DNA from: Daejeonella sp. JGW-45
GTDB taxonomy: Bacteria > Bacteroidota > Bacteroidia > Sphingobacteriales > Sphingobacteriaceae
Reading direction: 5' to 3'
DNA: 64,000 bases
NCBI RefSeq assembly: GCF_029360805.1
Contig: NZ_JARKNC010000003.1
Location: forward strand, 310,001-374,000
Shown here: piece by piece, positions 4,771 to 62,162 of the stretch
Layout: each line of letters opens with the position of its first letter
How positions within the stretch are numbered: position 1 is the stretch's first letter
Translations under genes and position numbers: made by a program
The notes under the pieces: model-generated
The model's database searches: none
Seen by the model: only the letters and a program-made list of their open reading frames with translations
Told to the model about the DNA's origin: nothing

Positions 4771-4969
4771 TTCGTGTCTGATTCGGCGAGTTTTCGTGAT
4801 TTTTTCGGTGGCCGCGCAATCCCCGTCGAACCGGACACGAATCTGTGCCGAACCTGTCACGGCGCTGATGCGGCACAGATACAGCCAAAACCCGAAGCGG
4901 ACCCGAAGCCCAGTCGAAGCCGACTCGAACAATTGTCGAAGTGCAGTCGAAGCCGTGTCGAACAAATTG
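4771..4969. repeat. 11-bp-period array with inverted arms (TTCG / CGAA words)
   Basis: On the plus strand TTCG starts at 4771, 4782, 4793 and 4804. CGAA then starts at 4827, 4838, 4849, 4893, 4904, 4915, 4926, 4937, 4948 and 4959, and the three missing slots (4860, 4871, 4882) hold degenerate CGGC, CGGC and CAGC. Every step is exactly 11 bp. The two arms are mirror-symmetric about position 4817. The array lies between the stop codon of the SGNH hydrolase (4980) and the start of fecR (4637). A period of 11 is not a multiple of 3, so the 111-codon frame across it (4630-4965) is not a gene. Confidence 0.85.
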
Positions 4970-4979
4970 TCTCTTTTAT

Positions 4980-5693
4980 CTATTTATTCAGACCGGTATT
5001 CCCCCTGGACTTTTTTGTTAAAGTAATAAGCGACCCTGCGATAAACGCTGCCTGTAAAGTTCTGACGGATTCGTTATAATGCACATGGTCAATATAGGTT
5101 TCGTCACCCAAATTGAGTGTGAACTGATATAGGTCAATCACAGGGATGTTTTTTTTGCTGAATACGTCGTCAGCAATAGCGTTATAGGTATCAACGTCTT
5201 TGGCAAAGCGATGAAATACCTTCGACCGGGTATTGTGTCTCTCGTCGACCACAGGAGTGGTTCGAAGCCAGATCAATTGGATATTTTTCTTCGTTGCTAT
5301 CCTGCAGATGGCCTCAAGATTCTGGCGGTATTGCACTTCATCTATCTGGATAACGGAAGTTTGGGAGTTACGTTTGATATCATGCAAACCGCAATTCAGT
5401 AACAGCATGTCAGGCTTAAAAGTTGGATCATTCTGTTTTAACTTCAGATATTCAAGTACCATCCGGGAATCACCACCATTCGCACCCTCCGGATTATCAA
5501 GATTACTTTCCCCCCTGCCGTTATCCTTCTTCCGGTCATAATCGAAGAAACCCTTCAATTGATTTTGCAAAAACGGACCGTACTGCATTGAGATGCTGTC
5601 TCCGATAACAAAAACCGTGGGCAGCTTCTCTTTAACTGAAAACCCAAAACTTAATAATATACAGAGAATAATGGTTAGTTTTTCAAATTTCAT
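4980..5693 (-). CDS. SGNH/GDSL-family exported hydrolase
   Basis: Protein of 237 residues from ATG at 5693 (an upstream TTG at 5708 is possible). A hydrophobic signal segment (MKFEKLTIILCILLSFGFS) is followed by the block I motif VIGDSIS with the nucleophilic Ser, an NCGLHD segment in place of the usual GxND block III, and the C-terminal DHVH (DxxH) catalytic pair about 32 residues from the end. These suggest a periplasmic or surface esterase that removes acyl groups from carbohydrate, but the substrate cannot be read from sequence. It sits between the sigma and fecR genes of the same operon, 45 bp after the sigma stop codon. This placement is unusual and links it to the polymer handled by the downstream SusC. 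Confidence 0.88.
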   Translation of the reverse strand: MKFEKLTIILCILLSFGFSVKEKLPTVFVIGDSISMQYGPFLQNQLKGFFDYDRKKDNGRGESNLDNPEGANGGDSRMVLEYLKLKQNDPTFKPDMLLLNCGLHDIKRNSQTSVIQIDEVQYRQNLEAICRIATKKNIQLIWLRTTPVVDERHNTRSKVFHRFAKDVDTYNAIADDVFSKKNIPVIDLYQFTLNLGDETYIDHVHYNESVRTLQAAFIAGSLITLTKKSRGNTGLNK

Positions 5694-5738
5694 AGCGTGT
5701 GGTATCAAAGCTATCAGGACGTTTGCAAGCCTGATAGA

Positions 5739-6284
5739 TCAATATAATCCCAGCGATATCCTTAGCTGGCGCAACGCCTTATTAAGGTGATTCTCGACCG
5801 TTTTAGGAGATATATCAAGCTTGGACGCGATCTCCTTATGCGACAACTGTTCTTCGCGGCTGAGCTTATAAACAGTTTTGCATTTATCTGAAAGATTATT
5901 GACGATCGAATTAACGTAAGACAGCAATTCCCGGTGCTCAATATTTCCGTATTCGGAGGGTGACTGAAGGCGCTCGGAAATACTCTCAAATATACTTTCC
6001 CTAACGGAACCATGCCGTACCTGGCGGTACACCTCGTAGCGAACAGACGCAAAAAGATAAGATTTAAGAGATGCCTTAATTTCTATTTGCTCCCGCTTAT
6101 TCCACAGGTTTATAAAAAGATCCTGGATGATATCTTCGCAGGCCTGCTGATCGTTGAGTACATGATATGCAGACACAAAAAGCTGGTTCCAATACTTCTT
6201 ATAAATTAGCTTCAGCGCAAGATCGTCTCCTGCCCTTAACCGCTCCATCAGCTCTGTATCCTCAAAAAGTTGTATCTCAGCCAT
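5739..6284 (-). CDS. ECF RNA polymerase sigma factor (FecI-like, Bacteroides expansion type)
   Basis: Protein of 181 residues. Region 2 (about residues 10-85) includes LIYKKYWNQLFVSAYHVL and CEDIIQDLFINLWNKR. Region 4 (about 120-175) includes LSREEQLSHKEIASKLDISPKTVENHLNKALRQLR, written here as two adjacent motifs of a sigma-70 region 4 helix-turn-helix. There is no extra domain. It heads the minus-strand operon with the SGNH hydrolase, FecR and SusC, and should direct transcription of the SusC locus when FecR releases it. The divergent amidohydrolase begins about 290 bp away on the other strand, with a shared intergenic region. Confidence 0.95.
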   Translation of the reverse strand: MAEIQLFEDTELMERLRAGDDLALKLIYKKYWNQLFVSAYHVLNDQQACEDIIQDLFINLWNKREQIEIKASLKSYLFASVRYEVYRQVRHGSVRESIFESISERLQSPSEYGNIEHRELLSYVNSIVNNLSDKCKTVYKLSREEQLSHKEIASKLDISPKTVENHLNKALRQLRISLGLY

Positions 6285-6366
6285 ACGAAGTTTAAACCTA
6301 TTTAAAAAAAATTAAAATTCAAAATATAACATTTTGATTACCGTACCTTAATAAACAATCAATTGA

Positions 6367-6391
6367 TTTTACCGGTTTCGTAACGGTAAAA
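6367..6391. promoter_or_regulatory. 8-bp perfect inverted repeat in divergent promoter region
   Basis: TTTTACCG (6367-6374) and CGGTAAAA (6384-6391) are perfect reverse complements separated by 9 nt. The repeat lies about 85 bp upstream of the sigma gene start and about 185 bp upstream of the amidohydrolase start. This size and spacing suit a dimeric regulator site or a small RNA hairpin. The rest of the 291-bp gap (6285-6575) is AT-rich, with no gene seen. Confidence 0.35.
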
Positions 6392-6575
6392 TTGCATAAA
6401 GCCAACATTATCTTATTATTATTTTTACCAACACTAGGGGGTAAAGTATTTTTCACACTCCTTATAATGAATGTAACTAAAATAAGATACAGTAATATGC
6501 CCTACGGGGCGATTATGAATGTATTTTCACGCCGAAATTCAATCAATTTCCATAGAAACGTTAAAACTTATCACA

Positions 6576-7895
6576 ATGAACCGAAAACAAATCTTCTTTT
6601 TCTCCGTGATGCTTTTGTGGTGTTCCGGCCTATTCGCGCAACAGGCTGGAACAGTCAAGCCTTATAACATCGTTATCAAAGGCGGCCACATTATTGATCC
6701 AAAAAACAATGTCGATGCTGTTATGGATATCGCCATTAAAGATGGCAAGATAGCTTTGATAGCAAAGAGCATCGACGGTACCCAGGGAACCCAGGTGGTT
6801 AACGCCAAGGGTATGTATGTGACTCCGGGACTCATTGACCTTCATGTTCACTTTTTCTGGGGACACGATGGATCTTCTTATATGAATGCTCCGTCAAGCC
6901 TTCCGGCCGATGGCTTTACCTTCCCTGCGGGTGTGACTACTGTTGTTGATGCCGGAAGCCCGGGCTGGAAAAATTTCGAATTATATAAAAAACAAACTAT
7001 AGACCGGTCGCAGACCAGGGTACTGGCTATGCTGAATATTGTTGGACAGGGAATGGCCGGCGGACAATATGAGAGCAATATCGACGAAATGGAGCCTCAG
7101 AAGACAGCCGATATGGCTAAAAAATATCCGGAGCATGTGGTAGGCGTGAAACTTGCGCATTTCAGCGGCCGAGGTCCTTTAGCTCATAGCTGGATCCCGG
7201 TTGACCGTGCGATCGAGGCTGGCAAACTTGCCAATATCCCTATCATGGTGGATTTCGGCTCGGCTACTCCTTATCTGCCGCTTGATTCGTTGTTTAATGT
7301 AAAGTTCCGCCCTGGCGATATATATACACATGCTTTTGGCGGAGATCCGCAGGTAGGATTAACTATTCAGAACGGCCGGGAATCGATCGTGGACGTCAGC
7401 GCTAAAAAAGTTAAACAATATGCCTTCACTGCTCAAAAAAGAGGCGTTATATTTGATGTTGGCTTTGGCGGGTCCAGTTTCCTCTTCTCACAGGGAATAC
7501 CGGCTATCAAAAGCGGGTTCTATCCTAACTCCATAAGTACCGACCTGCATACCGGTAGTATGAATAATGCCATGAAAAATATGCCGAATATCATGTCTTT
7601 GTTCATGGCGATGGGCATGCCGTTCAAGGAAGTTATCAAGGCTTCTACATGGAATCCCGCACAACAGATCAAGAGGCCGGAATTGGGAAATCTTTCTGTA
7701 GGTTCTGAGGCTGATATTGCTATTTTCACCGTTCGTAAGGGTAATTTTGGGTTCTACGCACGCGATGGAAAAATTCCGGGCAAGGAAAGGCTTGAAACAG
7801 AAATGACCATCAGGGCCGGCAGGATCGTCTATAACCTGAATGCTATTGCAGAACCAAACGTAATACAAGCACCTCCGCGTCCAAGAAACAGGTAG
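6576..7895 (+). CDS. exported amidohydrolase, cog3964/EF_0837-type (paralogue 1)
   Basis: Protein of 439 residues from ATG 6576; the 19 codons before it lack signal-peptide character. A signal peptide (residues 1-21, ending LFAQ) precedes the amidohydrolase fold: VIKGGHIIDPKNNVDAVMDIAI, the metal motif DLHVH with H90 and H92, a GVKLAH segment with a candidate carboxylated Lys, THAFGG, and a late STDLHTGS with the catalytic Asp. Such genes are often misannotated as dihydroorotase or enamidase. Characterised cog3964 members (for example Atu3266, from memory) cleave acetylated (R)-alpha-hydroxy acids; many members sit beside SelA-like PLP enzymes, and one lies 5.4 kb away (13306-14520). It heads a plus-strand gene run, 32 bp before the propeller gene. 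IMVDFG replaces the MVHxG-type motif I expect in the family. Confidence 0.88.
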   Translation: MNRKQIFFFSVMLLWCSGLFAQQAGTVKPYNIVIKGGHIIDPKNNVDAVMDIAIKDGKIALIAKSIDGTQGTQVVNAKGMYVTPGLIDLHVHFFWGHDGSSYMNAPSSLPADGFTFPAGVTTVVDAGSPGWKNFELYKKQTIDRSQTRVLAMLNIVGQGMAGGQYESNIDEMEPQKTADMAKKYPEHVVGVKLAHFSGRGPLAHSWIPVDRAIEAGKLANIPIMVDFGSATPYLPLDSLFNVKFRPGDIYTHAFGGDPQVGLTIQNGRESIVDVSAKKVKQYAFTAQKRGVIFDVGFGGSSFLFSQGIPAIKSGFYPNSISTDLHTGSMNNAMKNMPNIMSLFMAMGMPFKEVIKASTWNPAQQIKRPELGNLSVGSEADIAIFTVRKGNFGFYARDGKIPGKERLETEMTIRAGRIVYNLNAIAEPNVIQAPPRPRNR

Positions 7896-7927: not shown

Positions 7928-9355
7928 ATGCTTTTTAATTTCCGTATACAACAAACAGGGCTTTTAGCCCTGTTTGTGTCGTTTTCATTATTTGCTGAAG
8001 CACAGCAAACCAGACCGGTTGCACCGGTTAAAACCCCGGTCGCCTTGCGCGCTGATATTACTATCGATAAGGTAATGGACATCGGTCCGCTGGGTGTAAG
8101 GCTCATCAGAAACCCTAAAACGGGCGAATTCTGGTATTCTACCTTCGACGGGAATGTATTCAGGATCTCCGATTTTGATACGCCAAAGGCTGCCGAGCAT
8201 AAAATATTTTCAGCAGCAGACCATGGGATAACCCGTCTCCAGGGCGCTGCTTTCCTTAATAACACCTTGTTTTTGTGTGGAAATATCAGTGCAAATGGCG
8301 GAAAAGGAACAAAAGGAAGGATGGTCAAATACGATCTATCTAAGAAACAGCCGGTACTGACCGAAGTATTCAACACCGTAGAATACGGCACCAACGCAAC
8401 AACTTTTGACCATGGATGGAATGCCCTGGAGATCAGTCCGGATAAAAAATACATCTATGTTAACTCAGGAGCACGTACAGACCATGGGGAGGTGCAAGAT
8501 AATAACGGTGCTTATCCAAATGCGCGCGACAATGGGCTGACTGCAAATGTTTTCCGTTTCCCTGTAACGGCAGAAAACCTGTTACTCCCGTCGGAAGCCG
8601 CGGAGCTTAAGAAAATGGGCTACCTGTATGCCGAGGGAATACGCAATGCATACGATATGGCCTTTGATGCCGGCAACAATCTTTTCGGGGTAATTAACTC
8701 CGGTGATTATGATCAGTCAGAAGAGATGTTCTGGATCAGGCAAGGTCATCATTATGGATTTCCATGGCAAATGGCAGGAGTTGAAAACCCTCAACAGTTC
8801 TCGCCCTGGGTTCCGGACCCGGCTACAGATCTGTTTATAAGCCCTGGGGCTCATGCCTGGGTTGTTAAATATTTCCGGAACGACCCGGATTTCCCAAAGA
8901 TCCCGGCGGGCGTCAAATTCTCTCCGGGTGTACAGAACCTCGGCCCTGCGGCCAACGAATACCGCGATATCGCAACAGGAAAGATCGTGGATGGTGATAT
9001 TACCGGCCGCACGGTAAGTACATTTAATGCGCATTGCGTACCCCTGGGACTGGTGTTCGATACAAAGAAAGCACTCGCTCCTGAGTTTCGGGGCGACGGC
9101 TTCGTTTTCAGGTATGGGGGCGGCTCCACAAGGCCGGGCACTAACCTCCTTCGGAAGGAAGGCAAAGACCTGCTCCACCTTGAGATGCAGTACAATGAAG
9201 CTGCTGACAATTACTATATGAAAACTACCAGCCTGGCTAATAATTTCAATGCGCCGGTAGATGCTGTGCTTCACGGCAATAAGATCTATGTAATAGAACA
9301 CGGCGCCGCCGGATCAGCTGGCGGACGGATATGGAAGATTACTTTGCCCAGGTAG
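7928..9355 (+). CDS. exported PQQ-type sugar dehydrogenase-like beta-propeller protein
   Basis: Protein of 475 residues with an N-terminal signal (FSLFAEAQ near residue 25). It has the soluble glucose/sorbosone dehydrogenase-like propeller features: GNISANGGKGTKGRMVKYDL, GWNALEISPDKKYIYVNSGART, YAEGIRNAYDMAFD, and a final VIEHGAAGSAGGRIWKI repeat. There is no cytochrome c domain and no CxxCH motif. Family knowledge suggests PQQ-dependent oxidation of a sugar or alcohol in the periplasm, but many such Bacteroidota proteins have no known substrate. It follows the amidohydrolase by 32 bp and probably shares its transcript, which seems to end at the terminator at 9423-9465. Confidence 0.8.
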   Translation: MLFNFRIQQTGLLALFVSFSLFAEAQQTRPVAPVKTPVALRADITIDKVMDIGPLGVRLIRNPKTGEFWYSTFDGNVFRISDFDTPKAAEHKIFSAADHGITRLQGAAFLNNTLFLCGNISANGGKGTKGRMVKYDLSKKQPVLTEVFNTVEYGTNATTFDHGWNALEISPDKKYIYVNSGARTDHGEVQDNNGAYPNARDNGLTANVFRFPVTAENLLLPSEAAELKKMGYLYAEGIRNAYDMAFDAGNNLFGVINSGDYDQSEEMFWIRQGHHYGFPWQMAGVENPQQFSPWVPDPATDLFISPGAHAWVVKYFRNDPDFPKIPAGVKFSPGVQNLGPAANEYRDIATGKIVDGDITGRTVSTFNAHCVPLGLVFDTKKALAPEFRGDGFVFRYGGGSTRPGTNLLRKEGKDLLHLEMQYNEAADNYYMKTTSLANNFNAPVDAVLHGNKIYVIEHGAAGSAGGRIWKITLPR

Positions 9356-9411
9356 TTGAAAGTGGAAAGCTGAAAACTGAAAACTGAAAACTGAAAAGCT
9401 GAAAGTGAAAG
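9355..9411. repeat. 7-bp-period array (RSTGAAA words) at a stop codon
   Basis: Units GTTGAAA, GTGGAAA, GCTGAAA, ACTGAAA x3, then an 8-nt AGCTGAAA and GTGAAAG run from 9355 to 9411. The first base is the last base of the TAG stop codon of the propeller gene. Confidence 0.75.
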
Positions 9412-9422: not shown

Positions 9423-9465
9423 ATCTCCGGCTTAAGTTTTATACGAAATGGTCCGGAGATTTTCT
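9423..9465 (+). terminator. stem-loop terminator after the propeller gene
   Basis: ATCTCCGG (9423-9430) pairs perfectly with CCGGAGAT (9453-9460) across a 22-nt loop, followed by a TTTCTATTTTT run. It lies about 70 bp after the stop codon at 9355 and before the RidA gene. Confidence 0.6.
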
Positions 9466-9500
9466 ATTTTTAATTTACGAATCACATAAAAACAAAACAA

Positions 9501-9995
9501 ATGCAAAAATCAACTCCTGATCAGAATTTCGCGAAAACAGGTTTAACGTTGCCTCCTGCACCCGCTCCTATCGGTGTTTACAAACCCTGCCTGATTGACG
9601 GCAAGTACCTGTACGTGTCAGGGCACGGTCCTGTGCAAAACAACAAGGAACTGATCAAAGGGCGGATAGGCAAAGACATGGACCTGGAGCAAGGCAGACT
9701 TGCCGCGCAGCAGGTTGGATTAACTATTCTTTCAACTATAAAAACCAATCTGGGAAGTCTTAACAGGGTAAAAAGAGTCATTAAGGTTTTGGGAATGGTG
9801 AACAGCACCGCGGATTTTGAACAGCACCCTAAGGTTATTAACGGATGCAGTGAGCTTTTCGCCCAGGTATGGGGCCCTGAAAATGGCATCGGAGTAAGAA
9901 GTGCCGTAGGGTTTGGTTCCCTGCCGGATAACATCCCGGTAGAGATCGAGTGCCTGTTTGAATTGGCGAATACACCGGGAGATCCGTTGAAGTGA
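9501..9995 (+). CDS. RidA/YjgF-family protein
   Basis: Protein of 164 residues with no signal peptide, hence cytoplasmic. It matches the chorismate mutase-like RidA fold: APAPIGVYKPCLIDGKYLYVSG, GRLAAQQVGLTILSTIKTNLG, and the C-terminal VRSAVGFGSLPDNIPVEIE, whose Arg corresponds to the catalytic Arg of RidA (Arg105 in E. coli numbering). RidA enzymes hydrolyse reactive enamine/imine intermediates such as 2-aminoacrylate to keto acids. Its place beside an amidohydrolase and opposite a SelA-like PLP enzyme fits clean-up of an enamine made by PLP-dependent elimination, which is inference. The subfamily is longer than archetypal RidA (about 130 residues). Its stop codon abuts a long 7-bp repeat array. 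Confidence 0.9.
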   Translation: MQKSTPDQNFAKTGLTLPPAPAPIGVYKPCLIDGKYLYVSGHGPVQNNKELIKGRIGKDMDLEQGRLAAQQVGLTILSTIKTNLGSLNRVKRVIKVLGMVNSTADFEQHPKVINGCSELFAQVWGPENGIGVRSAVGFGSLPDNIPVEIECLFELANTPGDPLK

Positions 9996-9997
9996 CC

Positions 9998-10224
9998 GGT
10001 AATCGGTAATCGGTAATTGGTAATCGGTGATCAGTAATCAGTATCCACCGGATGTACCCCGCTGATTATTGATCACTGATCACCGACTTCTGATTACTAA
10101 ATACTGATCACTGAATACTGATCACTGAATACTGAATACTAATCACTAAATACCGATCACTGAATACTAATTCACTGAATACTGAATACTGATTACTGGC
10201 TACTAAATACTAACTACTAAAAAT
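9998..10224. repeat. 7-bp-period array with inverted arms, ending at the lctP start codon
   Basis: The left arm 9998-10046 is seven units of GGTAATC type. The right arm 10063-10224 is 23 units of TGATCAC/TGAATAC type with one single-base insertion (10168-10175). The right-arm word is the reverse complement of the left-arm word (GATTACC), so the tract can fold into long imperfect hairpins. It fills the whole gap between the RidA stop codon (9995) and the LctP ATG (10225). Confidence 0.88.
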
Positions 10225-11892
10225 ATGGAACAAATCTGGGCGCAAAACTACGACCCTTTAAATAACCCCTGGCTTTCCACAATATTGGCATCATTGCCTA
10301 TTATTGTACTGCTGGGATCGATTGCCATATTCCACATGCGCATTCATCTTGCTGCAATTTTAGGCCTTGCCGTTGCTGTATGCGTTGCGCTATTTGTTTT
10401 TGAAATGCCTGCACAAGCCGTGAGCGCGTCAACTCTTTATGGTGGCGCATACGGGCTATTTCCTATCGGATGGATCGTTCTTAACCTTATCTTCCTGTAC
10501 CAGCTGACCGTCGATAAAGGCCTGTTCACGCTTATCAGGATGCATTTATCTACGATTGCGCCTGATCCAAGGATCCAGGTTATCCTTATCGCATTCGCTT
10601 TCGGGGCATTTTTTGAAGGGGCGGCCGGCTTCGGAACGCCTGTTGCCATCACTGCAGCTATACTCATACAGCTCGGCTTCCGGCCGTTGGCTGCCTGCGG
10701 ATTAGCACTTATAGCAAATACTGCGCCCGTAGCTTTTGGAGCGCTTGGAACGCCTATAATCGCCCTATCCGCCGTAACTGGCATCGATATCCTTGCACTG
10801 TCAGCGATGGTAGGCAGACAACTCCCGCTTTTCTCCTTCATCGTACCATTCTGGGTGATCTGGGCTATGACCGGATTCAGGGGTATGATACAAGTATGGC
10901 CTGCGGCTTTTACCGCCGGCTTTTCTTTTGCGTTAACCCAGTTCCTCGTATCGAACTATCACGGGCCATGGCTGGTTGATATTTTTGCTTCAATTGCTTC
11001 TATTGTTTCCATCATTGTGCTGCTTAAGTTCTGGCAGCCGAAGACACTCTGGAAGTTACCTGTTGCCGAGGATACCGTGCCGATAGATAAAAACCCGGCG
11101 GGTGTTGAAAGGAAAGACATCATCAGAGCATGGACACCATGGGTAATCCTTGTAATTTTCATATTTGCCTGGGGCGTACCTACGGTTAAAACAGCTTTGA
11201 ATAAAATATCGGCTCCGGAATTTGAAGTCGCCTACCTGCACGAGCTGGTAAAACGCACTCCTCCAATTGCTCCTGAACCGACAATTGACAAACCGGCACA
11301 AGCAGAGGCAGCAGTATTCAAATTAAACTGGTTATCTGCAACAGGATCGGGGATATTAATTGCTGCAGTTATAGCCGGCTTTGCTATCGGTTACTCTTTC
11401 AAGCAAATGGTAAGAGCATATTTCCAGACCATGTGGAAGGTGAGGTTTTCCCTTATTACGATAGCCGCCATGCTGGCCCTGGGCTATGTGACTAAGTATT
11501 CCGGCGCGGATGCAACCCTCGGGCTTGCCCTGGCCAAAACAGGCGTACTTTATCCATTTTTCGGTACTATGCTTGGCTGGCTTGGCGTGGCGCTTACTGG
11601 TTCTGATACTGCCTCTAACGTTCTGTTCGGAAGCTTGCAGACAATAACTGCGAAGCAAACCGGTGTAGATCCTGTGCTTATGGCTGCAGCAAACAGCTCC
11701 GGCGGCGTTATGGGTAAGATGGTTGATGCACAGAGTATAGTTGTAGCAAGTACAGCCACAAACTGGTATGGCCACGAAGGCCAGATCCTGCGGTACGTGT
11801 TTTTTCACAGTATTGCGCTGGCTGCGCTTGTAGGGATTTTTGTCATCCTGCAGGCATATGTGATACCGTTTTCGGATATGGTAGTGAAGTAG
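10225..11892 (+). CDS. L-lactate permease family transporter (LctP/GlcA type)
   Basis: Polytopic inner-membrane protein of 555 residues. The family signature FFEGAAGFGTPVAITAAILI lies at about residues 130-150. NTAPVAFGALGTPIIAL and, near the C terminus, LTGSDTASNVLFGSLQ and NSSGGVMGKMVDAQSI are also typical of LctP. Characterised members import L-lactate, D-lactate and glycolate by proton symport. No lactate dehydrogenase is adjacent, but a lutABC operon lies at 50366-53081. Its start codon directly follows the 7-bp repeat array, so translation initiation may be affected by that structure. The family call is firm; lactate against glycolate cannot be decided from sequence. Confidence 0.94.
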   Translation: MEQIWAQNYDPLNNPWLSTILASLPIIVLLGSIAIFHMRIHLAAILGLAVAVCVALFVFEMPAQAVSASTLYGGAYGLFPIGWIVLNLIFLYQLTVDKGLFTLIRMHLSTIAPDPRIQVILIAFAFGAFFEGAAGFGTPVAITAAILIQLGFRPLAACGLALIANTAPVAFGALGTPIIALSAVTGIDILALSAMVGRQLPLFSFIVPFWVIWAMTGFRGMIQVWPAAFTAGFSFALTQFLVSNYHGPWLVDIFASIASIVSIIVLLKFWQPKTLWKLPVAEDTVPIDKNPAGVERKDIIRAWTPWVILVIFIFAWGVPTVKTALNKISAPEFEVAYLHELVKRTPPIAPEPTIDKPAQAEAAVFKLNWLSATGSGILIAAVIAGFAIGYSFKQMVRAYFQTMWKVRFSLITIAAMLALGYVTKYSGADATLGLALAKTGVLYPFFGTMLGWLGVALTGSDTASNVLFGSLQTITAKQTGVDPVLMAAANSSGGVMGKMVDAQSIVVASTATNWYGHEGQILRYVFFHSIALAALVGIFVILQAYVIPFSDMVVK

Positions 11893-27853: not shown

Positions 27854-28038
27854 GTTGTAAGTTATACGTTGTAAGTTAATAAGATAGTTATAGGTTGTAA
27901 GTTTTACGTGATACGTTACTACGTAAAAAGCCGCAATAAGTTAGTTTTACGCGATACGTTAGATATTATGATAAAAGCCGCAAGTTAATAAGTTAAAAGA
28001 TCAGTCAAACGTACTACGTACAACTTACAACGTAATAC
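27854..28038. repeat. 7-bp-period array (GTTGTAA/GTTATAC words) containing a stop codon
   Basis: Units GTTGTAA, GTTATAC, GTTGTAA, GTTATAG, GTTGTAA, GTTTTAC and GTGATAC run from 27854 to 27914. GTTTTAC and GCGATAC sit at 27944-27957. The inverted words GTACTAC, GTACAAC, TTACAAC and GTAATAC run from 28011 to 28038. An 11-nt word AAAAGCCGCAA occurs twice in the interior. The TAA stop of the heparinase-family gene (28025-28027) and its last codons lie inside the final units. Confidence 0.8.
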
Positions 28039-31000
28039 TCAATAGGCCTTCGCCAGCCGGAACCGTTATTGAAAGGGTCTTGGTGTCGCTATCGTAGACA
28101 ATATTACGCACACCGACGCCATTCAGCTTTAGGGATGATGGTTTCGCCGGCGACCCGATCAGCAATTTAGCGTCTTTATCAACCGAGTATTTCAATCCTT
28201 CATCAGAAAACTCAAAGCTCAATGGCCTGTCGGCGCTCAGCGACCTGCTTCCGGCCGCCCCTTTAAAAATCTTAGCAAGAGCTACAAAGATCCTGTCCTG
28301 GTTCCATACCACGGCGGCTGCGTCAGTCTCCCCCACAGATGCTTTATATAGTTTGCCCGGACGGGTATTAAAGACAAACTGTTTGCCTGATGCTGTGCCC
28401 TGAACAAAACCGTCCTTCACTTCGGTGACCACATCCGGTGCAGTTCCCCTGGTTGTTGTAAGGATGTTTGCCATCACGAGTGGCTCCCTGCCTTTTGTAC
28501 TCGCCGATACAGTAAGCATACCCTCCTTTTTCAGATGGCGTTCCCGCTGAAGTGTATATAAATAATGCGGCGTTTCAACTGCCTTTGTTTCAACTGCAGA
28601 GGGTGAAATGTGCAGGAAGTTTAAAGCAACCCCGTTTTTAGTGATGGTAGAAACGTCTTTCCCGGCCTTTATATCCTCCAGTTTAGCTGTTTGATATAAG
28701 AGAGTAACCTTGGCATCCTTCCCGGACGGCACTGCTGTATCCAGCATCAGTATTGTGCGGGGCTTAATATAGACCACATTTCTTGCCAGAGACTTTACCT
28801 TATCGAAATAGAGCCGCCCTATATCGCCTGAAGAAAATGCAGCATCTGTTCCGTCAAGGAAGTTTGCGATAAATGCATGATCATCAAAGCCAGGGGCAAA
28901 CTTAAGATGATCACCCGTACGCTGACTCTGCTCATTATCGTCTATGAGGATAGTCGAATGGGCAACCGGCTGAATAAGCTTAGGCTGGTACAGCGGGTCG
29001 TCATAATACGTTGAATTCTTCAGATGGCGCTCTTCCACGAATATCTCACCGTGATCGGCCAGCCAGAAGCTACCCTGATCTATGTGCTGATGGTTATAAA
29101 ATGCACCCGTACGCATAACGAAAGTAAAATCATCCTTTTCCCAACCATTCTTAAAGACAGTGGTTCCTATTTCGCGGAAAGCCTTCACAGGACTTTCGTC
29201 AAAGGGACTATCTTCCGGGATACCCTTGGTATTAAATAAAACATCTTCATACGTCTCGCCCGATTTCATAAAGTTATAGAACCAGCTAAGCCGTGGTTCC
29301 CTCCGTTTTTCCAGCAGGAAAGCCCAGAAGGTAGCCGGTGTCATTTCCCCTTTAGAGTCGCCGTATTCGAACCACAGTTTGTTCCTTACATTCCCCGCAT
29401 AGATAAATTCTTTATAAGTACCGACCAAAGGTGCGGTCAGATCGATGTTAAACACGTTCTGCAGGGCAGGCAGGCTATAAGACATATTGGAAAAAGAGTA
29501 ACTGTTATAACCATAACCTTCACCCCATGCGCCATCTTTAGAATCTACAACGCGGTTAATGAACTTGTTATACTTGAGCATCGCTCCGGTAAAATATGGT
29601 TCCAGATTCTGTGTTTCAGGTCCGTCATCATATATAGCAGCCATATTCATCAGGGAGCCACCCAGGATCATTGCAAGCCAGTTAGAAGTTGCCGCTGTTA
29701 TATCATCGTTGTAGACGTAAGTACGGTGCGCGCCGTCTACAATGTTTGCCATAATTGCTTTCCTAACCTTTGTGCGCTCTTCCGGAGTCATCAGATCATA
29801 CACCAGATCATAGGCCTCGGCAACTCTGTGAGCCCAGCTGCCAGTACGATGCTCGCTGTAACGGCCACGATTAGTTTGCCATGGATGCGTCCAGTCTGGC
29901 CACCCGGACAGCTTCACGAGCACATCTTTTGCATATAGGCCCGCCTCCTTTTCACCGTGGAACGTATAGGCTCTCGCGTTCAAACGCAAGGCCTCGCCAG
30001 TATGATAAATTTTATTTCCCCAGGCATTCCAGGTGGCTAACCAGTCTTCTTTCGGGAATTGATCAAGGTCATAAATGAGAGTATTCACTGGTATAGCTTC
30101 GCGCTGCTTTTTGGCTGCATTTTTAATATCGCTATATACCTTGCCGAACTCAGGCTGCTGCAGCTTAGCCTGAAGCAATTCTTTTTTATCGGAATCAAAT
30201 AGCAAGCGCGGATGTTTTCCGCTCATGTTTTTTGGCGCAATATGAATAGTGAATTCTGTTGTAGAAAGAATCTTACTGCCATCGGCAGCATTTAGCTTAC
30301 CAATATAAAGTCCTACAGGAAAGGCCAGTTTCAATGGCTTCAGGGACCAGCCGTTTGCATTCTTAACCAGTTCGCCTTTATAAAAAGATTTGCTTTCATC
30401 AGCAAAGGATACGATTTCCAGATTTACCTTTTTTGCATCAAGGGGCCACTGACCGGCCAATACAAAGTTATCATTCTGATAGTAATGCTTTTTTGGAATG
30501 TATGGAGCATATTCCGGCAGTTTGACTACTTCAGGGGTGGCAAAACGAAATTCTGTTGCCCGGGAAGCAGAAAGAGAGATATCGTCAATTCCAAAATATA
30601 TAGGCATATCAGGGTCAGCAGAAGGAAATTTTGCCAAAAATGCGAGGGCATATATGCGGACTTTGTTTTTTCCTGCTATAGCTGGATTCTCCTTAAGCAG
30701 ATCGTTAAAATCCACTGTGGCTGTAACCCATTTATTCCTTTCCGGGTTATTGATTGTGAAGTCCAGTTTTCCGTATTCGCCTGCAGCGAACCTTACCTTA
30801 TAAAACTCCGCCTTGCTATTCGATTTCAGATAGTATCTGAACGACAGCCTGGCTGCAGGTGTAAGATACATATCAAGCAATTTCTGGGCGCCAGCATATG
30901 CATCCACGTTGGTGAATGCTGTTACCTTCTGAACGACCGAGATATTCGGATCGCCGGGCACAATTTCGTTAGGCCGGAAGTCCTGATTATATGCGATGTC

Positions 31001-31174
31001 CTGCCAATGCGGATATGAGGCCCAGGCACCCAACTCCCTGTCCTGGAAATCCTCTGAATACACTGACGGTTCAAGGACCACATCGGGGTTTACACGTGGT
31101 ACCGTATTGAGCTGAGCTTGTGCCACCGGGGTTGTACAGATTAGGGCGGCAGCAAATAATGATATTCTCTTCAT
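28025..31174 (-). CDS. heparinase II/III-family polysaccharide lyase, large multidomain
   Basis: Protein of 1049 residues from ATG 31174; an in-frame TTG/ATG upstream adds 11 non-signal residues. After a signal peptide (to AQAQ) come a jelly-roll-like region (to about 205), an Ig-like region (about 210-320), an alpha/alpha toroid with TAATSNWLAMILGG and GAWGEGYGYNSYSF (Asn, Tyr region, about 490-560), and the heparinase II/III beta-sheet domain with YNHQHIDQGSFWLAD (about 695-710). HxHxD is the metal-binding/structural signature. Such enzymes cleave uronic-acid-containing polymers by beta-elimination. The final residues and stop codon are encoded by the 7-bp repeat array. The exact polymer is unknown; the neighbouring sulfatase and amino-sugar genes favour a glycosaminoglycan-like substrate. 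Confidence 0.87.
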   Translation of the reverse strand: MKRISLFAAALICTTPVAQAQLNTVPRVNPDVVLEPSVYSEDFQDRELGAWASYPHWQDIAYNQDFRPNEIVPGDPNISVVQKVTAFTNVDAYAGAQKLLDMYLTPAARLSFRYYLKSNSKAEFYKVRFAAGEYGKLDFTINNPERNKWVTATVDFNDLLKENPAIAGKNKVRIYALAFLAKFPSADPDMPIYFGIDDISLSASRATEFRFATPEVVKLPEYAPYIPKKHYYQNDNFVLAGQWPLDAKKVNLEIVSFADESKSFYKGELVKNANGWSLKPLKLAFPVGLYIGKLNAADGSKILSTTEFTIHIAPKNMSGKHPRLLFDSDKKELLQAKLQQPEFGKVYSDIKNAAKKQREAIPVNTLIYDLDQFPKEDWLATWNAWGNKIYHTGEALRLNARAYTFHGEKEAGLYAKDVLVKLSGWPDWTHPWQTNRGRYSEHRTGSWAHRVAEAYDLVYDLMTPEERTKVRKAIMANIVDGAHRTYVYNDDITAATSNWLAMILGGSLMNMAAIYDDGPETQNLEPYFTGAMLKYNKFINRVVDSKDGAWGEGYGYNSYSFSNMSYSLPALQNVFNIDLTAPLVGTYKEFIYAGNVRNKLWFEYGDSKGEMTPATFWAFLLEKRREPRLSWFYNFMKSGETYEDVLFNTKGIPEDSPFDESPVKAFREIGTTVFKNGWEKDDFTFVMRTGAFYNHQHIDQGSFWLADHGEIFVEERHLKNSTYYDDPLYQPKLIQPVAHSTILIDDNEQSQRTGDHLKFAPGFDDHAFIANFLDGTDAAFSSGDIGRLYFDKVKSLARNVVYIKPRTILMLDTAVPSGKDAKVTLLYQTAKLEDIKAGKDVSTITKNGVALNFLHISPSAVETKAVETPHYLYTLQRERHLKKEGMLTVSASTKGREPLVMANILTTTRGTAPDVVTEVKDGFVQGTASGKQFVFNTRPGKLYKASVGETDAAAVVWNQDRIFVALAKIFKGAAGSRSLSADRPLSFEFSDEGLKYSVDKDAKLLIGSPAKPSSLKLNGVGVRNIVYDSDTKTLSITVPAGEGLLSITL

Positions 31175-31239
31175 TTTTTTAGTTAAAGGTCCCGGATTCA
31201 TATCCAATAAATAGATCTAACGGCTTTGAGCAGGGATTT

Positions 31240-54337: not shown

Positions 54338-55288
54338 ATGCGCGATATCACCAGCAAACAAGTAACCCTTCGTACGGCCCGGGCCGTTGGCATTATATTT
54401 TGTTCAGCGAACTCTATAGGACTGATCAATTCGGGCTCCCTGCCTAAAGGTAATTTGTTTGATGTGGCTCGCGCTGCCGGTTTTCTCGGTGCGAAGCTGA
54501 CACCGCAGCTCCTGCCCCATTGCCACCCGGTAACTATCGATGGGATGGATTTCACTTTCGAATTCCTGAGCCGGGAGCTTCATGCGGAGCTGTTTGGCGA
54601 TGCGATTGCCGCACGTACCGGTATCGTTATTTCCGGAGAAGCTAAGTCCATTGGCCGGACGGGTATTGAGATGGAGACGCTTACGGCTGTATCCGTCGCA
54701 GCGCTGGAGATCTACGATATGTTAAAACCAGTGGATACCGGCCTTGAGATCGGCCATATTAAACTGCTGGAAAAGAAAGGCGGCAAGAGCGACCGGAGCC
54801 GGTTTACTGAAACAACTCCGACCTGCGCTGTACTTGTCTGTTCAGATTCCACAGCAGCAGGTACTCGTGAAGATAAGAGCGGCAGGCTGGTATCTGCCAT
54901 GCTTGAGAACGTTAAGGCCAGTGTATTACATTACAAAGTGCTCCCTGACGACAAGGAAGCCATTCAAGCCCAGATCAAAGCCTGGGTAGCTGATGATGTC
55001 CAGTTCATTTTTACCACCGGGGGTACAGGACTCGGGCCGCGGGACAATACCACGGAGGCTGTATGTGAGATCCTCGAACGCAATGCAGATGGCATATCGG
55101 AGGCTATGCGCAGCTTCGGCCAGGCGCGTACTCCACTGGCAATGATGAGCCGCTCTATTGCAGGCACTATCGCAAGCACCCTGATCGTTACCCTGCCGGG
55201 AAGCACCAACGGCGCCCGCGAATCGCTCGAGGCCATTTTGCCCGGGGTGTTTCATGCAAGAAAGATGATGGAGGGAGGCTCTCACTGA
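54338..55288 (+). CDS. moaCB: bifunctional molybdenum cofactor biosynthesis protein MoaC-MoaB
   Basis: Protein of 316 residues. Residues 1-155 are MoaC: MRDITSKQVTLRTARAVG, PKGNLFDVARAAGFLGAK, LLPHCHPVTIDGMD (His61-Cys62-His63) and GIEMETLTAVSVAALEIYDM. Residues 165-316 are MoaB/MogA-like: ALVCSDSTAAGTREDKSG-type start, FTTGGTGLGPRDNTTEAV and the final TLPGSTNGARESLEAILPG. MoaC forms cyclic pyranopterin monophosphate with MoaA; MoaB-type domains adenylylate molybdopterin or are inert. No moaA, moaD, moaE or moeA is adjacent. The molybdenum hydroxylase at 59433-62032 is a likely client. An 11-bp repeat array begins 5 bp after its stop codon. Confidence 0.95.
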   Translation: MRDITSKQVTLRTARAVGIIFCSANSIGLINSGSLPKGNLFDVARAAGFLGAKLTPQLLPHCHPVTIDGMDFTFEFLSRELHAELFGDAIAARTGIVISGEAKSIGRTGIEMETLTAVSVAALEIYDMLKPVDTGLEIGHIKLLEKKGGKSDRSRFTETTPTCAVLVCSDSTAAGTREDKSGRLVSAMLENVKASVLHYKVLPDDKEAIQAQIKAWVADDVQFIFTTGGTGLGPRDNTTEAVCEILERNADGISEAMRSFGQARTPLAMMSRSIAGTIASTLIVTLPGSTNGARESLEAILPGVFHARKMMEGGSH

Positions 55289-55293
55289 CCGCT

Positions 55294-55391
55294 ATCTAAG
55301 TACCATCCTACGCTGATCCTACGCATAAAGTATCACTATCCCTGTGTGATCCTATAGCTGTCCTGGCTCTCAGCGTTCTCATCCTATAAGC
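55294..55391. repeat. 11-bp-period array (ATCCTAnnnnn words) after moaCB
   Basis: Successive 11-bp slots read ATCTAAGTACC (55294), ATCCTACGCTG (55305), ATCCTACGCAT (55316), AAAGTATCACT (55327), ATCCCTGTGTG (55338), ATCCTATAGCT (55349), GTCCTGGCTCT (55360), then a 10-nt slot, and ATCCTATAAGC (55381). It starts 5 bp after the moaCB stop codon. The rest of the gap to 55580 has an inverted repeat GGTGAAAA/TTTTCACC (about 55413-55440) and a direct TTCCGCC repeat (55446, 55467). Confidence 0.65.
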
Positions 55392-59432: not shown

Positions 59433-61568
59433 TTAAATGACTGTCTTGAACACATCGAGCTCGGCAAATGGCTGGCTTCTCAACCTCTTACCAGTTGCCT
59501 TGAAGATCGCATTCGCCACGGCACCTCCCGTTGGCGGAAGCGCTGGCTCCCCAAGTCCTGTTGGATCTATACCATTGTCGACAAAGTGTGTTTCAATTTC
59601 AGGGATCTCTTTCATCCGGATCAGGCGGTAGCTGTCGTAGTTCCTTTGCTGCGCTGCGCCATCTTTAAAACTAAGCTTGCTGTACATCGCGTGTCCCAGG
59701 CCATCAACGATGCCGCCCATTACCTGCTGGCGTGCGCCTCCGAGGTTAACCACCTGCCCGCAATCTGCAACAGCAACTATCTTTTTAACGACAGGCATAC
59801 TACCCTGCATTTCTACTTCCGCCACCTGGGCAACGTAAGAAGCATGTGAGAAATACACACTAAAGCCCTGTGATACATTTTTATTTTTACCCCAGTTCGA
59901 CTTCTCAGCCGCAAGCTTGATCACACCGATCATCCGGTCGACATCATAGCGCACCGGACCTGCAGGGCTTTTCTTAGCCTTTTCCAATAGTTCAAGCCTG
60001 AATGTCACCGGGTCTTTGCCTGCCGCCACAGCTACTTCATCCAGGAATGATTGCTCAGCATAGGCCAGGAAATTAGTTATCGGCGCACGCCATGCACCGG
60101 TGGTTATGGGCGACTTATGTTCTACTGAATCTATTAAAAGGTTGTCGACAGAGCCTGAAGGGAAATTATTCTCCCGTGTAGAATTGCCGGCATTTATTCC
60201 AACACCTCTTAATTTATAACCGGTCATATTACCCGATGCATCCAGCGCTGCTTCAAAACGATAGCGTACTGCCGGGCGGTAGGTACCACCGGTCATGTCA
60301 TCTTCTTTTGTCCAGATAAGCTTGATAGGCGCTTTCATGATGCTCGACAATTCGGCTGCTTCTACAGCGAAATCATTGTTGAGTCTCCTTCCGAAACCAC
60401 CTCCCAGGCGGGTAAGCTCTAAACTTATCTTATCCTCCGGAACTTTGAGCAGCTGAGCAACCTGTGTACGGGCCCGTGCAGGTGTCTGGGTAGGGCCGGC
60501 GAGTTCAACGCTATCAGGTTTTACGTGAGCAAAGAAGTTCATGGGCTCCATCGGACTGTGAGAAAGGAATGGGCACTGATATTCTCCTTTGACAACTTTA
60601 GCGGCATTCTTAAATGCGGCATCTACGTCGCCCTCTTTGCGGCGCACGGTGGCCGTTCCACTGTCCATTAAAGAAAGGAAAAGCTTGTTGTGATCATCTG
60701 TACTTTCAATATCTCCCTCCTTCTCATATTCTATCTTAAGCAGCTTCCTGGCTTTCATAACCTGCCAAGTCGACTTTCCTACGACAGCAACGTTATTCTT
60801 AAAACTAACCACATCGACGATGCCTGGCATCGCTTTCGCAGCAGCCGAATCTACCGACTTAAGTTTCATCCCAAATGATTCAGGTCGCTGTATCATCGCG
60901 AAAAGCATACCTTCACGTTGGAAATCAAGGCCAAAAAGCGGCTTGCCTGTAACTATCTTCTTATTTTCCACGTTCCTGACACTGGATCCGATCAGCTTAA
61001 AGTCTTTCCTGTCTTTAAGTTTTACATCAGTGGGTACAGACAATTTCGAAGCTGCTTCGGCCAGCTCACCATAGCTTAATTTTTTGCCCGACCGGTGGCT
61101 TACATAGCCGAGCGATGCGGTGCATTCAGATTCAGGTACAGACCATTGCTTTGCTGCCGCCTGAATGAGCATAGCTTTGGCTGTTGCTCCTGCCGTCCGG
61201 AGCAGTTTCCAGGAATGCGGTACTGCACCGCTGCCCCCTGTAAGTTGCCGGTCGAATTTGTTATCCAGGTTTGCCTGTAAAACTTTAACCTTTGTCCAAT
61301 CAGCTTCGAGCTCTTCAGCCACTACCATTGGAAAAGAGGTCATAATATTTTGTCCGAGCTCAGGGTTAGGCGACATGATGGTCACCACCCCGTCGGTAGC
61401 GATAGACAGGTAGCTGTTAAACCCGATGTTTCCCGCTAGGGCAGCATCAGAAACAATAACAGGCGCTGCCTCTACATTAAACCAGTTGAAGCCCAATACA
61501 AGTCCCCCGCCGGTAATAGCTGTCATCTTTAAGAAATCGCGCCGGCTGTTTTTAATTACACTTTCCAT
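59433..61568 (-). CDS. molybdopterin-binding hydroxylase subunit, IorB/xanthine-dehydrogenase-like, Tat-exported
   Basis: Protein of 711 residues. Twin-arginine signal SRRDFLKMTAITGGG (about 8-22). Molybdenum-site motifs: QFxGP-type EPMNFFAHVKPDSVELAGPTQ, GGGFGRRLNNDFAVEAAELS (about 390-410), GAWRAPITNFLAYAEQSFLD, and the C-terminal GLGEPALPPTGGAVANAI with the catalytic Glu. This is the isoquinoline 1-oxidoreductase/aldehyde dehydrogenase type that works with a small [2Fe-2S] subunit (61574-62032). It hydroxylates an aldehyde or N-heterocycle in the periplasm. No cytochrome c subunit is present, so the electron acceptor is unknown. Confidence 0.94.
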   Translation of the reverse strand: MESVIKNSRRDFLKMTAITGGGLVLGFNWFNVEAAPVIVSDAALAGNIGFNSYLSIATDGVVTIMSPNPELGQNIMTSFPMVVAEELEADWTKVKVLQANLDNKFDRQLTGGSGAVPHSWKLLRTAGATAKAMLIQAAAKQWSVPESECTASLGYVSHRSGKKLSYGELAEAASKLSVPTDVKLKDRKDFKLIGSSVRNVENKKIVTGKPLFGLDFQREGMLFAMIQRPESFGMKLKSVDSAAAKAMPGIVDVVSFKNNVAVVGKSTWQVMKARKLLKIEYEKEGDIESTDDHNKLFLSLMDSGTATVRRKEGDVDAAFKNAAKVVKGEYQCPFLSHSPMEPMNFFAHVKPDSVELAGPTQTPARARTQVAQLLKVPEDKISLELTRLGGGFGRRLNNDFAVEAAELSSIMKAPIKLIWTKEDDMTGGTYRPAVRYRFEAALDASGNMTGYKLRGVGINAGNSTRENNFPSGSVDNLLIDSVEHKSPITTGAWRAPITNFLAYAEQSFLDEVAVAAGKDPVTFRLELLEKAKKSPAGPVRYDVDRMIGVIKLAAEKSNWGKNKNVSQGFSVYFSHASYVAQVAEVEMQGSMPVVKKIVAVADCGQVVNLGGARQQVMGGIVDGLGHAMYSKLSFKDGAAQQRNYDSYRLIRMKEIPEIETHFVDNGIDPTGLGEPALPPTGGAVANAIFKATGKRLRSQPFAELDVFKTVI

Positions 61569-61573
61569 AATGA

Positions 61574-62032
61574 TCAGGCTTTAGTACTTGCTAATTTAAC
61601 TGCTTCGCGGATGCGGTGATAGGCGCCGCAACGGCATATATTACCATGCATAGTATTTGCAATATCCTCGTCGGAAGGCTTTGGTGTCTTTTTCAATAAA
61701 GCCGCAGCCGTCATGATCTGGCCGGCCTGGCAGTAACCGCATTGCGCTACATCAACTTCGTCCCATGCCAGCTGTAAAGGATGGTCTCCTTTCTCGGATA
61801 GACCTTCTATCGTAATTACCTGAGAGTTGCCTACGGCAGACACCGGGTACACACAAGAGCGGGTTGCTCCCCCGTTTACATGAACGGTACAGGCACCGCA
61901 CTGGGCGATCCCGCAGCCATATTTAGTTCCCACCAGTCCCAGATGGTCACGAAGGACCCAAAGAAGAGGGGTATCCGGTTCAACATCCGCCTGCAGTGTT
62001 TTACCGTTAACTTGAAGTTTATAAGTAGCCAT
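61574..62032 (-). CDS. [2Fe-2S]-binding subunit of molybdenum hydroxylase (IorA-like)
   Basis: Protein of 152 residues. The plant-type ferredoxin cluster is Cys40, Cys45, Cys48 and Cys60 ([18 protein letters not shown]). The second, helical cluster is Cys98, Cys101, Cys133 and Cys135 ([12 protein letters not shown]). It passes electrons from the molybdenum subunit 5 bp downstream. It has no signal of its own and would be carried out with the Tat-exported large subunit. First gene of this minus-strand pair. Confidence 0.96.
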
Positions 62033-62112
62033 AAATTAGGTATTGGTCGTTTTAAAAATAACTAAAATTATCTTCAATAAAATGTAACAATATCGTTTTT
62101 TAGCCGCCAGCG

Positions 62113-62162
62113 TCTCCCATCCCCATATCTCATCTCTCACAGCTCATCTCTCACATCTCAGT
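62113..62162. repeat. 7-bp-period array (TCTCACA/TCTCATC words)
   Basis: TCTCCCA (62113), an 8-nt slot, then TCTCATC (62128), TCTCACA (62135), GCTCATC (62142), TCTCACA (62149) and TCTCAGT (62156) run in a 7-bp register. It lies in the 195-bp divergent gap between the [2Fe-2S] subunit gene and the second amidohydrolase. Confidence 0.65.

What the first reader, a model, noticed from the sequence alone, without database searches (positions are those of the whole stretch)
4771..62162. A genome-wide class of fixed-period, variable-word intergenic arrays (period 7 or 11)
Six arrays occur in 64 kb: period 11 at 4771 and 55294, period 7 at 9355, 9998, 27854 and 62113. Unit words differ at each locus, three show inverted arms, and five abut or include the stop codon of the preceding gene. 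Independent loci converging on two exact periods implies a shared generating process, such as templated or hairpin-primed slippage synthesis by a dedicated polymerase or reverse transcriptase, or shared structural selection. I cannot say that it is undescribed, but I recognise no named element with these properties.
Basis: partly seen in the sequence, partly recalled or inferred. Interest (0 to 1): 0.8.

Follow-up and report, generated by a model that had tools for sequence, protein, structure and literature searches.

The report
Outward-pointing seven-base repeats between bacterial genes
Gaps between genes in this Bacteroidota bacterium, and in several other bacteria and phages, carry arrays of near-identical seven-base units whose G-richer strand usually points away from the neighbouring gene; seven-base repeats are a known kind, but I found no description of that shared direction.

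Summary
In 1.52 Mb of the window's genome (genus Daejeonella, Bacteroidota), a scan for tandem periods 3-13 finds 100 arrays at period 7, 9 at 11, and 0-2 at every other period. Intergenic heptamer repeats are a known kind (LSSR5-11, cyanobacterial STRRs, TAACTGA arrays).

What I did not find described is their geometry: gene, G-rich array, spacer, C-rich array, gene. Adjacent opposite arrays read G-then-C 101 times and C-then-G 5 times, without gene calls. The rule, seen in 77 arrays, held in 800 kb of unread sequence (21:3 left, 1:22 right, p=4e-9). It also holds, more weakly, in a cyanobacterium, contigs of many phyla and phage contigs.

Array sites are shared with D. lutea more than chance; 3 of 8 shared sites have unrelated words. 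Of 20 indels inside phage arrays 9 are exactly 7 bp, against 2 of 76 outside. Slippage is the likely engine; the polarity is unexplained.

Not supported: one process for 7 and 11 (11-mers show no polarity), or a reverse transcriptase (none found in two array-bearing relatives). Two of the six reported loci are individually weak.

The parts
9353..9410 (+). Period-7 array, words TTGAAAG and CTGAAAA, starting at the stop codon of ORF 7928-9355; G-strand points away from that gene
   Evidence: composition A29 C5 G14 T10
9997..10043 (+). Left (G-strand) arm of an inverted period-7 pair, word CGGTAAT/CAGTAAT, directly after the stop of ORF 9501-9995
   Evidence: C6 against G13
10044..10062 (.). Spacer between the two arms
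10063..10220 (-). Right (C-strand) arm of the same pair, words CTGATTA, CTGATCA, CTGAATA, ending next to the start of ORF 10225-11892 (L-lactate permease)
   Evidence: C33 against G17
27854..27921 (+). Degenerate left arm, words GTTGTAA and GTTATAC
   Evidence: C5 against G16 over 27854-27925
28008..28040 (-). Right arm of the same inverted pair, words ACGTACA and ACTTACA, overlapping the stop of minus-strand ORF 28025-31207
   Evidence: C9 against G3
62113..62160 (-). Weak C-strand array (14-bp unit x2.3, 7-bp sub-period) between divergent ORFs
   Evidence: C22 against G2 over 62113-62162
4771..4975 (.). Period-11 array (TCGAAGCC-type units; 33-bp higher-order unit at 4904-4971) ending next to the stop of minus-strand ORF 4980-5708 (GDSL lipase family); a separate class without polarity
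55289..55345 (.). Weak period-11 tract (CCTACGCTGAT-type) after the stop of ORF 54338-55288
   Evidence: by eye it resembles the AACGTAGGATA arrays of own contig C2 and D. lutea

Best explanation
The period-7 arrays are heptanucleotide simple sequence repeats that grow and shrink by slippage of whole 7-bp units. They occupy non-coding gaps up to the edges of genes, where purifying selection stops them. They tend to form inverted pairs whose G-richer strand runs 5'->3' away from the flanking gene, so a gap reads G-array, spacer, C-array on either strand. Shown: the period, the edge location, the inverted pairing, the polarity, frequent unit-size indels (in phage contigs), and sites shared between species with words that sometimes differ. 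Inferred: slippage during replication or repair as the generator, with 7 nt set by polymerase contact as proposed by others; same-word arms made or kept alike by fold-back template switching. Not explained: why polarity also holds for single arrays and for arms with unrelated words. My leading inference is that synthesis of new units is directional (3' ends pointing into the gap), rather than that a given word is selected. The period-11 arrays are a separate, rarer, apparently lineage-limited repeat class.
For: Period 7 dominates without gene calls: own 100 of 116 segments at periods 3-13, D. lutea 41 of 51, Fischerella 113 of 152 (the 400-kb Fischerella stretch does not contain the word hits that led to the genome). 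In the word-selected sets, with the selecting matches excluded, cross-phylum loci still have 76 at period 7 against 11 at 8 and 8 at 10. Unit-size indels: 9 of 20 indels inside arrays are exactly 7 bp, against 2 of 76 outside, in 26 non-identical homologous gap pairs (79 further pairs were identical). Polarity: discovery 42:7 / 7:19; independent test 21:3 / 1:22; one vote per gap side, Daejeonella 56:7 / 4:40 (p=1.3e-17), Fischerella 28:12 / 9:24 (p=0.0004), cross-phylum 46:23 / 17:45 (p=1e-5), phage 56:19 / 32:57 (p=8.5e-7); gene-call-free order 101:5. Control, array-free 45-nt gap edges: odds ratio 1.77 in Daejeonella, 1.14 in Fischerella, 0.82 cross-phylum. Polarity in single-array gaps: 25:4 / 3:12. 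Shared sites against D. lutea: of 98 gaps 8 both, 5 and 6 one-sided, 79 neither, p=1.8e-5; words unrelated by my reading in 3 of the 8. Edge location: 52 of 100 within 12 nt of a stop, 28.5 expected. Array gaps fold more strongly: median z -2.45 (45 gaps) against -0.76 (60 gaps), p=0.0002.
Against: Plain slippage gives no polarity and predicts random words; instead a small genome-specific lexicon recurs. In Daejeonella, short motifs sit at the inner edge of arrays of different words: CGTACC in 8 of 113 inner and 0 of 113 outer flanks; AGCGTTTAG 15 of 28 occurrences near arrays, where 1.6% of the sample is near arrays, though several of the 15 are copies within one D. lutea tandem cluster. That hints at a dispersed element with a core; TAAACGC, ACGTACC and CTGGGCGG were not enriched at inner edges in Fischerella or the cross-phylum loci. 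11 of 20 in-array indels are not 7 bp, and events among related contigs are not independent. D. lutea alone gives G->C 3, C->G 2 in the gene-call-free test. The array-free control in Daejeonella shows a weak polarity of its own (p=3.6e-5). In Fischerella the rule is absent in convergent gaps (7:2 / 4:2) and does not hold as a purine rule (p=0.43). In divergent gaps it is weak overall (25:9 / 11:18, p=0.0056) and absent in the phage set (5:3 / 6:5). Genes were called by a simple longest-ORF rule.
Confidence: 0.5

Rival explanations
1. Dispersed element: each gap carries a copy of a small non-autonomous element with a short core whose terminal inverted arms are heptamer arrays; elements insert in gaps and their arms then drift.
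For: Recurrent inner-edge motifs shared by arrays of different words; recurrent lexicon; whole-gap replacement between phage contigs with near-identical flanks, e.g. L310/L361 and L402/L308.
Against: The motifs mark a minority of arrays and were not found in the other two data sets tested. By eye, 7 or 8 of the 33 two-arm gaps have unrelated words in the two arms. No target-site duplication or transposase was tested.
Confidence: 0.2
2. Selected RNA or DNA function: arrays are gene-end hairpins (termination, mRNA protection or insulation), kept for structure, not sequence.
For: Stronger folding and gap-type bias: short divergent gaps carry none (0 of 70), short convergent gaps 19 of 97; stop-codon proximity; fewer arrays than expected by length in divergent gaps of Fischerella (16 against 31.4) and the cross-phylum loci (14 against 36.1) and of the phage loci (58 against 85.8).
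Against: Long divergent gaps do carry them (9 of 67), and the first 77 arrays showed no gap-type bias. At the one place I looked, a separate terminator-like stem with a T-run (9424-9471) lies downstream of the array. Polarity holds for unpaired arrays. Nine other genus members examined show no array at the orthologous site (read by eye).
Confidence: 0.15
3. Codon-level filter: orientation is simply the one that supplies stop codons in all frames after a gene.
For: Of 63 stop-proximal arrays the sense strand has more stop triplets in 44, fewer in 13, equal in 6.
Against: G>C predicts orientation better (53 against 5, 5 ties), and the rule also holds at start-side edges of tandem gaps, where no stop is needed.
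Confidence: 0.07
4. A dedicated reverse transcriptase or telomerase-like enzyme writes the repeats.
For: DRT10 enzymes make tandem-repeat DNA (passages of PMC12632851); the own genome and D. lutea each have one RVT_1 match.
Against: G010 and G013 carry heptamer arrays in their sampled 20 kb but have no RVT_1 match. The DRT10 unit given for Eco3 is 9 nt.
Confidence: 0.03

Closest known systems
Heptanucleotide long simple sequence repeats (LSSR5-11; Mrazek et al. 2007, seen only as cited in PMC4679880 and PMC4692102)
   Same: Tandem units with 7 nt the commonest length, scattered phylogeny, polymerase-slippage proposal
   Different: Here arrays are imperfect, often paired in inverted orientation, and oriented by gap edge; that geometry is not in the passages I read
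TAACTGA repeats of Beggiatoaceae, some cyanobacteria and Bacteroidetes (MacGregor 2015, PMC4679880; introduction and selected passages read)
   Same: Heptamer arrays between genes; mostly forward toward start codons in one genome, consistent with the C-strand arm of the rule; indels mostly in 7-nt steps between two Cyanothece strains
   Different: One fixed word; no general polarity across words in the passages seen, and mixed orientation in Microcystis; the TAACTGA necklace is not among the Daejeonella consensus necklaces
GGGAATC / GGGGA(T/C)T repeats of Xanthomonas and Nostoc (PMC4692102; selected passages read)
   Same: Intergenic heptamers, length and sequence variation between close relatives, inverted repeats noted
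   Different: G-quadruplex words; a strand rule relative to gap edges is not in the passages seen
REP/REPIN/BIME elements (recalled; PMC3116915 seen in a search listing only)
   Same: Short intergenic inverted repeats
   Different: As recalled, a fixed palindrome and a RAYT transposase define them; here the units are variable-word tandem arrays; RAYT not tested
DRT10 telomerase-like repeat synthesis (PMC12632851, passages)
   Same: Templated tandem-repeat DNA, variable words
   Different: cDNA made in phage defence, 9-nt unit for Eco3; two array-bearing relatives lack an RVT_1 match

Membership tests
Intergenic heptanucleotide SSR (LSSR5-11 / STRR) | Tandem 7-nt units more often than chance | tested here: met
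   100 segments in 1.52 Mb; none in 8 shuffles of the intergenic sequence of 400 kb
Intergenic heptanucleotide SSR (LSSR5-11 / STRR) | Copy number changes by whole units | tested here: met
   9 of 20 in-array indels are exactly 7 bp, 2 of 76 outside; in phage contigs, not in Daejeonella strains
Intergenic heptanucleotide SSR (LSSR5-11 / STRR) | Mainly non-coding | tested here: met
   35 segments in 70.0 kb of called gaps plus 50 in 86.6 kb of called gaps with 30-nt flanks, against 100 in the whole 1.52 Mb
TAACTGA arrays | Word TAACTGA | tested here: not met
   Its necklace AACTGAT occurs in Fischerella (12 arrays) but is not among the necklaces Daejeonella shares with Fischerella or the cross-phylum set, so it is not a Daejeonella consensus word
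REP/REPIN | Conserved palindrome of about 20-25 nt in many copies (recalled) | tested here: inconclusive
   Only short inner-edge motifs recur; 37% of the genome read
REP/REPIN | RAYT transposase in the genome (recalled) | not tested
   No search made
RT-written repeats (DRT10-like) | Reverse transcriptase present wherever arrays are | tested here: not met
   G010 and G013: arrays, no RVT_1 match
Known structured RNA | Rfam match at array loci | tested here: not met
   0 matches in the window at gathering thresholds
Intrinsic transcription terminators | GC-rich stem followed by a T-run | not tested
   Folding was tested, T-runs were not scanned systematically

The most novel reading that the evidence does not exclude
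A directional repeat-adding process, widespread in bacteria, extends 3' ends facing into intergenic gaps with 7-nt units, G-richer strand first, so that both sides of a break or stalled gap receive G-strand arrays that are then joined. This would be a telomere-like healing or snap-back synthesis mode that needs no reverse transcriptase and also acts between phage genes.
Probability: 0.1. Interest if true: 0.9.

Novelty: new variant of a known kind. Interest (0 to 1): 0.6.

Why it matters
A strand rule that holds across unrelated words, gene orientations and several bacterial groups means heptamer repeats are not just random slippage products. It gives a simple, quantitative signature that any model of their origin or use must explain, and it makes the old question of why seven bases testable: unit length, strand and gap edge can be varied independently. 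It also warns that intergenic sequence can be swapped wholesale while flanking genes stay nearly identical, as in a few phage gaps here.

Tried and rejected
But Daejeonella and Fischerella share only 1 necklace (2.5 expected by chance), and the cross-phylum set was selected by that word. Rejected.

Transcription terminators as the whole story: gap-type counts were flat in the first sample (42 tandem, 13 convergent, 22 divergent against 41.9, 11.3, 23.8); in the second, convergent gaps were enriched (18 against 6.9) and divergent gaps depleted (5 against 13.6). Not decisive.

Stop-codon supply as the cause of polarity: weaker than the G/C rule. A purine rule: weaker in Daejeonella and absent in Fischerella.

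Gene-caller artefact: the order test was repeated without gene calls. I reason, without a test, that 5' over-extension of called ORFs would bias the other way.

Period 11 as the same class: no polarity. Period 9 does show polarity pooled over the sets (8:2 / 0:10), small numbers.

Dropped before counts: arrays with equal G and C; gaps under 20 to 60 nt depending on the script; gaps with runs of N; the D. lutea cluster at 217580-217960 of the joined stretch (46-bp tandem copies) (composition only; lexicon only); redundant phage loci (71 of 110 kept); 79 identical gap pairs. The phage and cross-phylum loci were selected because they contain a period-7 word, so their array density is not a genome-wide estimate.

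Literature: seven paper searches. One search searched five array strings and returned none; one search searched polarity and inverted-orientation terms and listed nothing on this rule by title or abstract start. Passages were read in PMC4679880, PMC4692102, PMC4060949, PMC12699852 and PMC12632851. PMC12699852 reports no average enrichment of short tandem repeats in bacteria. I did not see Mrazek 2007 itself.
Full report
WHAT WAS CHECKED. The window is contig 4, 310001-374000, of a 4.1 Mb genome. I therefore call the source a Daejeonella species (Bacteroidota, Sphingobacteriaceae). I scored places where a sequence matches itself at a fixed lag (match +1, mismatch -1.5, score at least 14), for lags 3-13 or more, and compared with dinucleotide shuffles.

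THE OBSERVATION. In the window, lag 7 is in excess in gene gaps (z=6.3) and lag 11 only weakly (1.8). Locus by locus: 9355, 9998 and 4771 are strong, 27854 is real but degenerate, 55294 and 62113 are weak on their own. Genome-wide the claim holds. The first 400 kb gave 14 segments at period 7, 5 at 11 and none at the other periods from 3 to 13; shuffles gave none. The first 724 kb gave 35, 6 and none. All 1.52 Mb without gene calls gave 100 at 7, 9 at 11, 2 at 10, 2 at 3, and one each at 6, 8 and 9. D. lutea (0.4 Mb) gave 41 and 4, with 2, 1 and 2 at 8, 9 and 10 and 1 at 3.

TWO CLASSES. Single 20-kb stretches of 20 relatives, taken without selection (one was 213 bases and one 2,521), gave 10 segments at 7, 1 at 8, 2 at 9 and none at 11. 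Fischerella sp. PCC 9431 gave 113 of 152 segments at 7 and none at 11 in 400 kb. Two sets selected by a heptamer word also lean to 7: contigs of many phyla 234 of 296, non-redundant phage contigs 311 of 445; with the selecting matches removed the cross-phylum gaps still have 76 at 7 against 11 at 8 and 8 at 10. The twelve period-11 arrays in Daejeonella show no strand rule (2:4 left, 4:2 right) but share words across species: AACGTAGGATA occurs in both genomes. I treat period 11 as a separate repeat.

GEOMETRY. Arrays of the 7-class often occur as inverted pairs. In Daejeonella gaps with exactly two segments by a laxer threshold, the order along the top strand is G then C in 33 and C then G in 1. 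In the first 77 arrays, those in the left half of a gap had G>C on the top strand 42:7, those in the right half 7:19. I fixed this rule and tested it on 800 kb not yet read: 21:3 and 1:22, p=3.6e-9. With one vote per gap side it holds in Daejeonella, Fischerella, the cross-phylum contigs and the phage contigs (pooled 186:61 and 62:166, p=1.6e-26). It is strongest in Daejeonella (56:7 and 4:40). Pooled by gap type it holds in tandem and convergent gaps and weakly in divergent gaps (25:9 and 11:18, p=0.0056); it is absent in Fischerella convergent gaps (7:2 and 4:2) and in phage divergent gaps (5:3 and 6:5). Without gene calls, adjacent opposite arrays within 150 bp read G-then-C 101 times and C-then-G 5 times (own 14:0, D. 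lutea 3:2, Fischerella 16:1, cross-phylum 27:1, phage 41:1). Array-free gap edges show little of this (odds ratios 1.77, 1.14, 0.82), though the Daejeonella value is significant (p=3.6e-5). The rule also holds where only one array is present (25:4 and 3:12) and where the two arms have unrelated words (7 or 8 of 33 gaps, read by eye). It is a G-versus-C rule: purine content is weaker in Daejeonella and shows nothing in Fischerella. The window's own 7-class arrays fit it, the weak 62113 included (composition).

PLACE. 52 of 100 arrays in tandem or convergent gaps lie within 12 nt of a stop codon, against 28.5 expected. Short divergent gaps carry none (0 of 70), short convergent gaps 19 of 97, long divergent gaps 9 of 67. 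Genes were called by a longest-ORF rule, so 5' ends are approximate.

CHANGE. In 98 gaps syntenic between the own genome and D. lutea, 8 have arrays in both, 5 and 6 in one, 79 in neither (p=1.8e-5); by my reading 3 of the 8 have unrelated words, 1 has words one base apart, 4 the same family. After ORF 7928-9355 the own genome has CTGAAAA units, D. lutea GTAATCA units, and nine other genus members show no array (read by eye). In homologous phage gaps with flanks at least 90% identical, 104 of 115 array-bearing pairs are alike, 8 partly, 3 replaced; below 90%, 0 of 15 are alike, 5 partly, 10 replaced. These pairs are not independent. Indels inside arrays are exactly 7 bp in 9 of 20 cases, against 2 of 76 outside. 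In one pair (L310/L361) the flanking blocks are 97.4% and 96.5% identical while the gap has changed from GAAAACC-type to CAGTGAG/CTGATTA-type units; both look G-first by eye.

PHAGE CONTIGS. A scan of viral contigs with CRGTRATC x3 returned 110 stretches. In some, gaps of 60 nt or more nearly all have arrays: 8 of 8 in L372, 7 of 7 in L334 and L373, 9 of 10 in L389 and L401; over all 110 redundant loci 243 of 520 gaps. Of ten proteins tested from L372, L334 and L371, seven match PHROGs families, among them tail, neck and head-tail proteins, and five match Pfam families. These contigs were chosen because they contain the word, so the density is not typical. Whether they are prophages in array-rich hosts is not known.

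WORDS. Each genome has its own small lexicon: the Daejeonella set 51 necklaces in 118 arrays, Fischerella 37 in 102; one is shared, 2.5 expected. An exact 24-mer of the CTGAAAA word has 26 overlapping matches at 8 places in the own genome and none in 40 relatives. The CRGTRATC word occurs in 11 of 296 genomes of the phylum, the own genome included.

MECHANISM. Unit-size indels fit slippage, as proposed for heptamers (Mrazek 2007, cited in PMC4679880 and PMC4692102, passages read). Slippage alone gives neither polarity nor a recurrent lexicon. Fold-back copying could give same-word arms, but single arrays and unrelated arms also obey the rule, so I infer a directional step whose nature is open. 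A reverse transcriptase is unlikely: two relatives with arrays have no RVT_1 match. A dispersed element with a core is a serious rival in Daejeonella, because short motifs recur at the inner edges of arrays of different words.

RELATION TO WHAT IS KNOWN. The 7-class belongs with intergenic heptanucleotide repeats. MacGregor (PMC4679880) reports that TAACTGA arrays mostly face start codons in one genome, which agrees with the C-strand arm of this rule, and a mixed picture in Microcystis (passages). I found no statement of the general rule in seven searches, seen as listings plus the passages named above; by its description the library lacks most subscription papers.

Noticed in passing
D. lutea G001 C10 617457-617964: A 46-bp unit made of heptamers plus a TTTTAAGCGTTTAGTAAC-type stretch is itself repeated about eight times in tandem in one gap.
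   Followed up: partly
own genome and D. lutea, inner edges of arrays: Short motifs AGCGTTTAG, CGTACC and CTGGGCGG recur next to arrays of different words; a core element may exist in this genus.
   Followed up: partly
Fischerella G334 C1 1000001-1400000: Period 9 is the second class there (25 segments); pooled over all sets, period 9 shows the same polarity (8:2 / 0:10).
   Followed up: no
L308, L310 and L361 gaps: Palindromes of the type GTAGGGGCGGGTTTTAAACCCGCCCCTAC and spaced GATGAACAC-type units sit in gaps that carry heptamers in close relatives.
   Followed up: no
window 9424-9471: A stem with T-run (TCTCCGG...CCGGAGA-TTTT) lies downstream of the 9353-9410 array; a similar stem is visible in several genus members.
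   Followed up: partly
L301 (G000 C9 402008-402574): The single RVT_1 match of the own genome, in a 575-aa open frame; its type was not determined.
   Followed up: no
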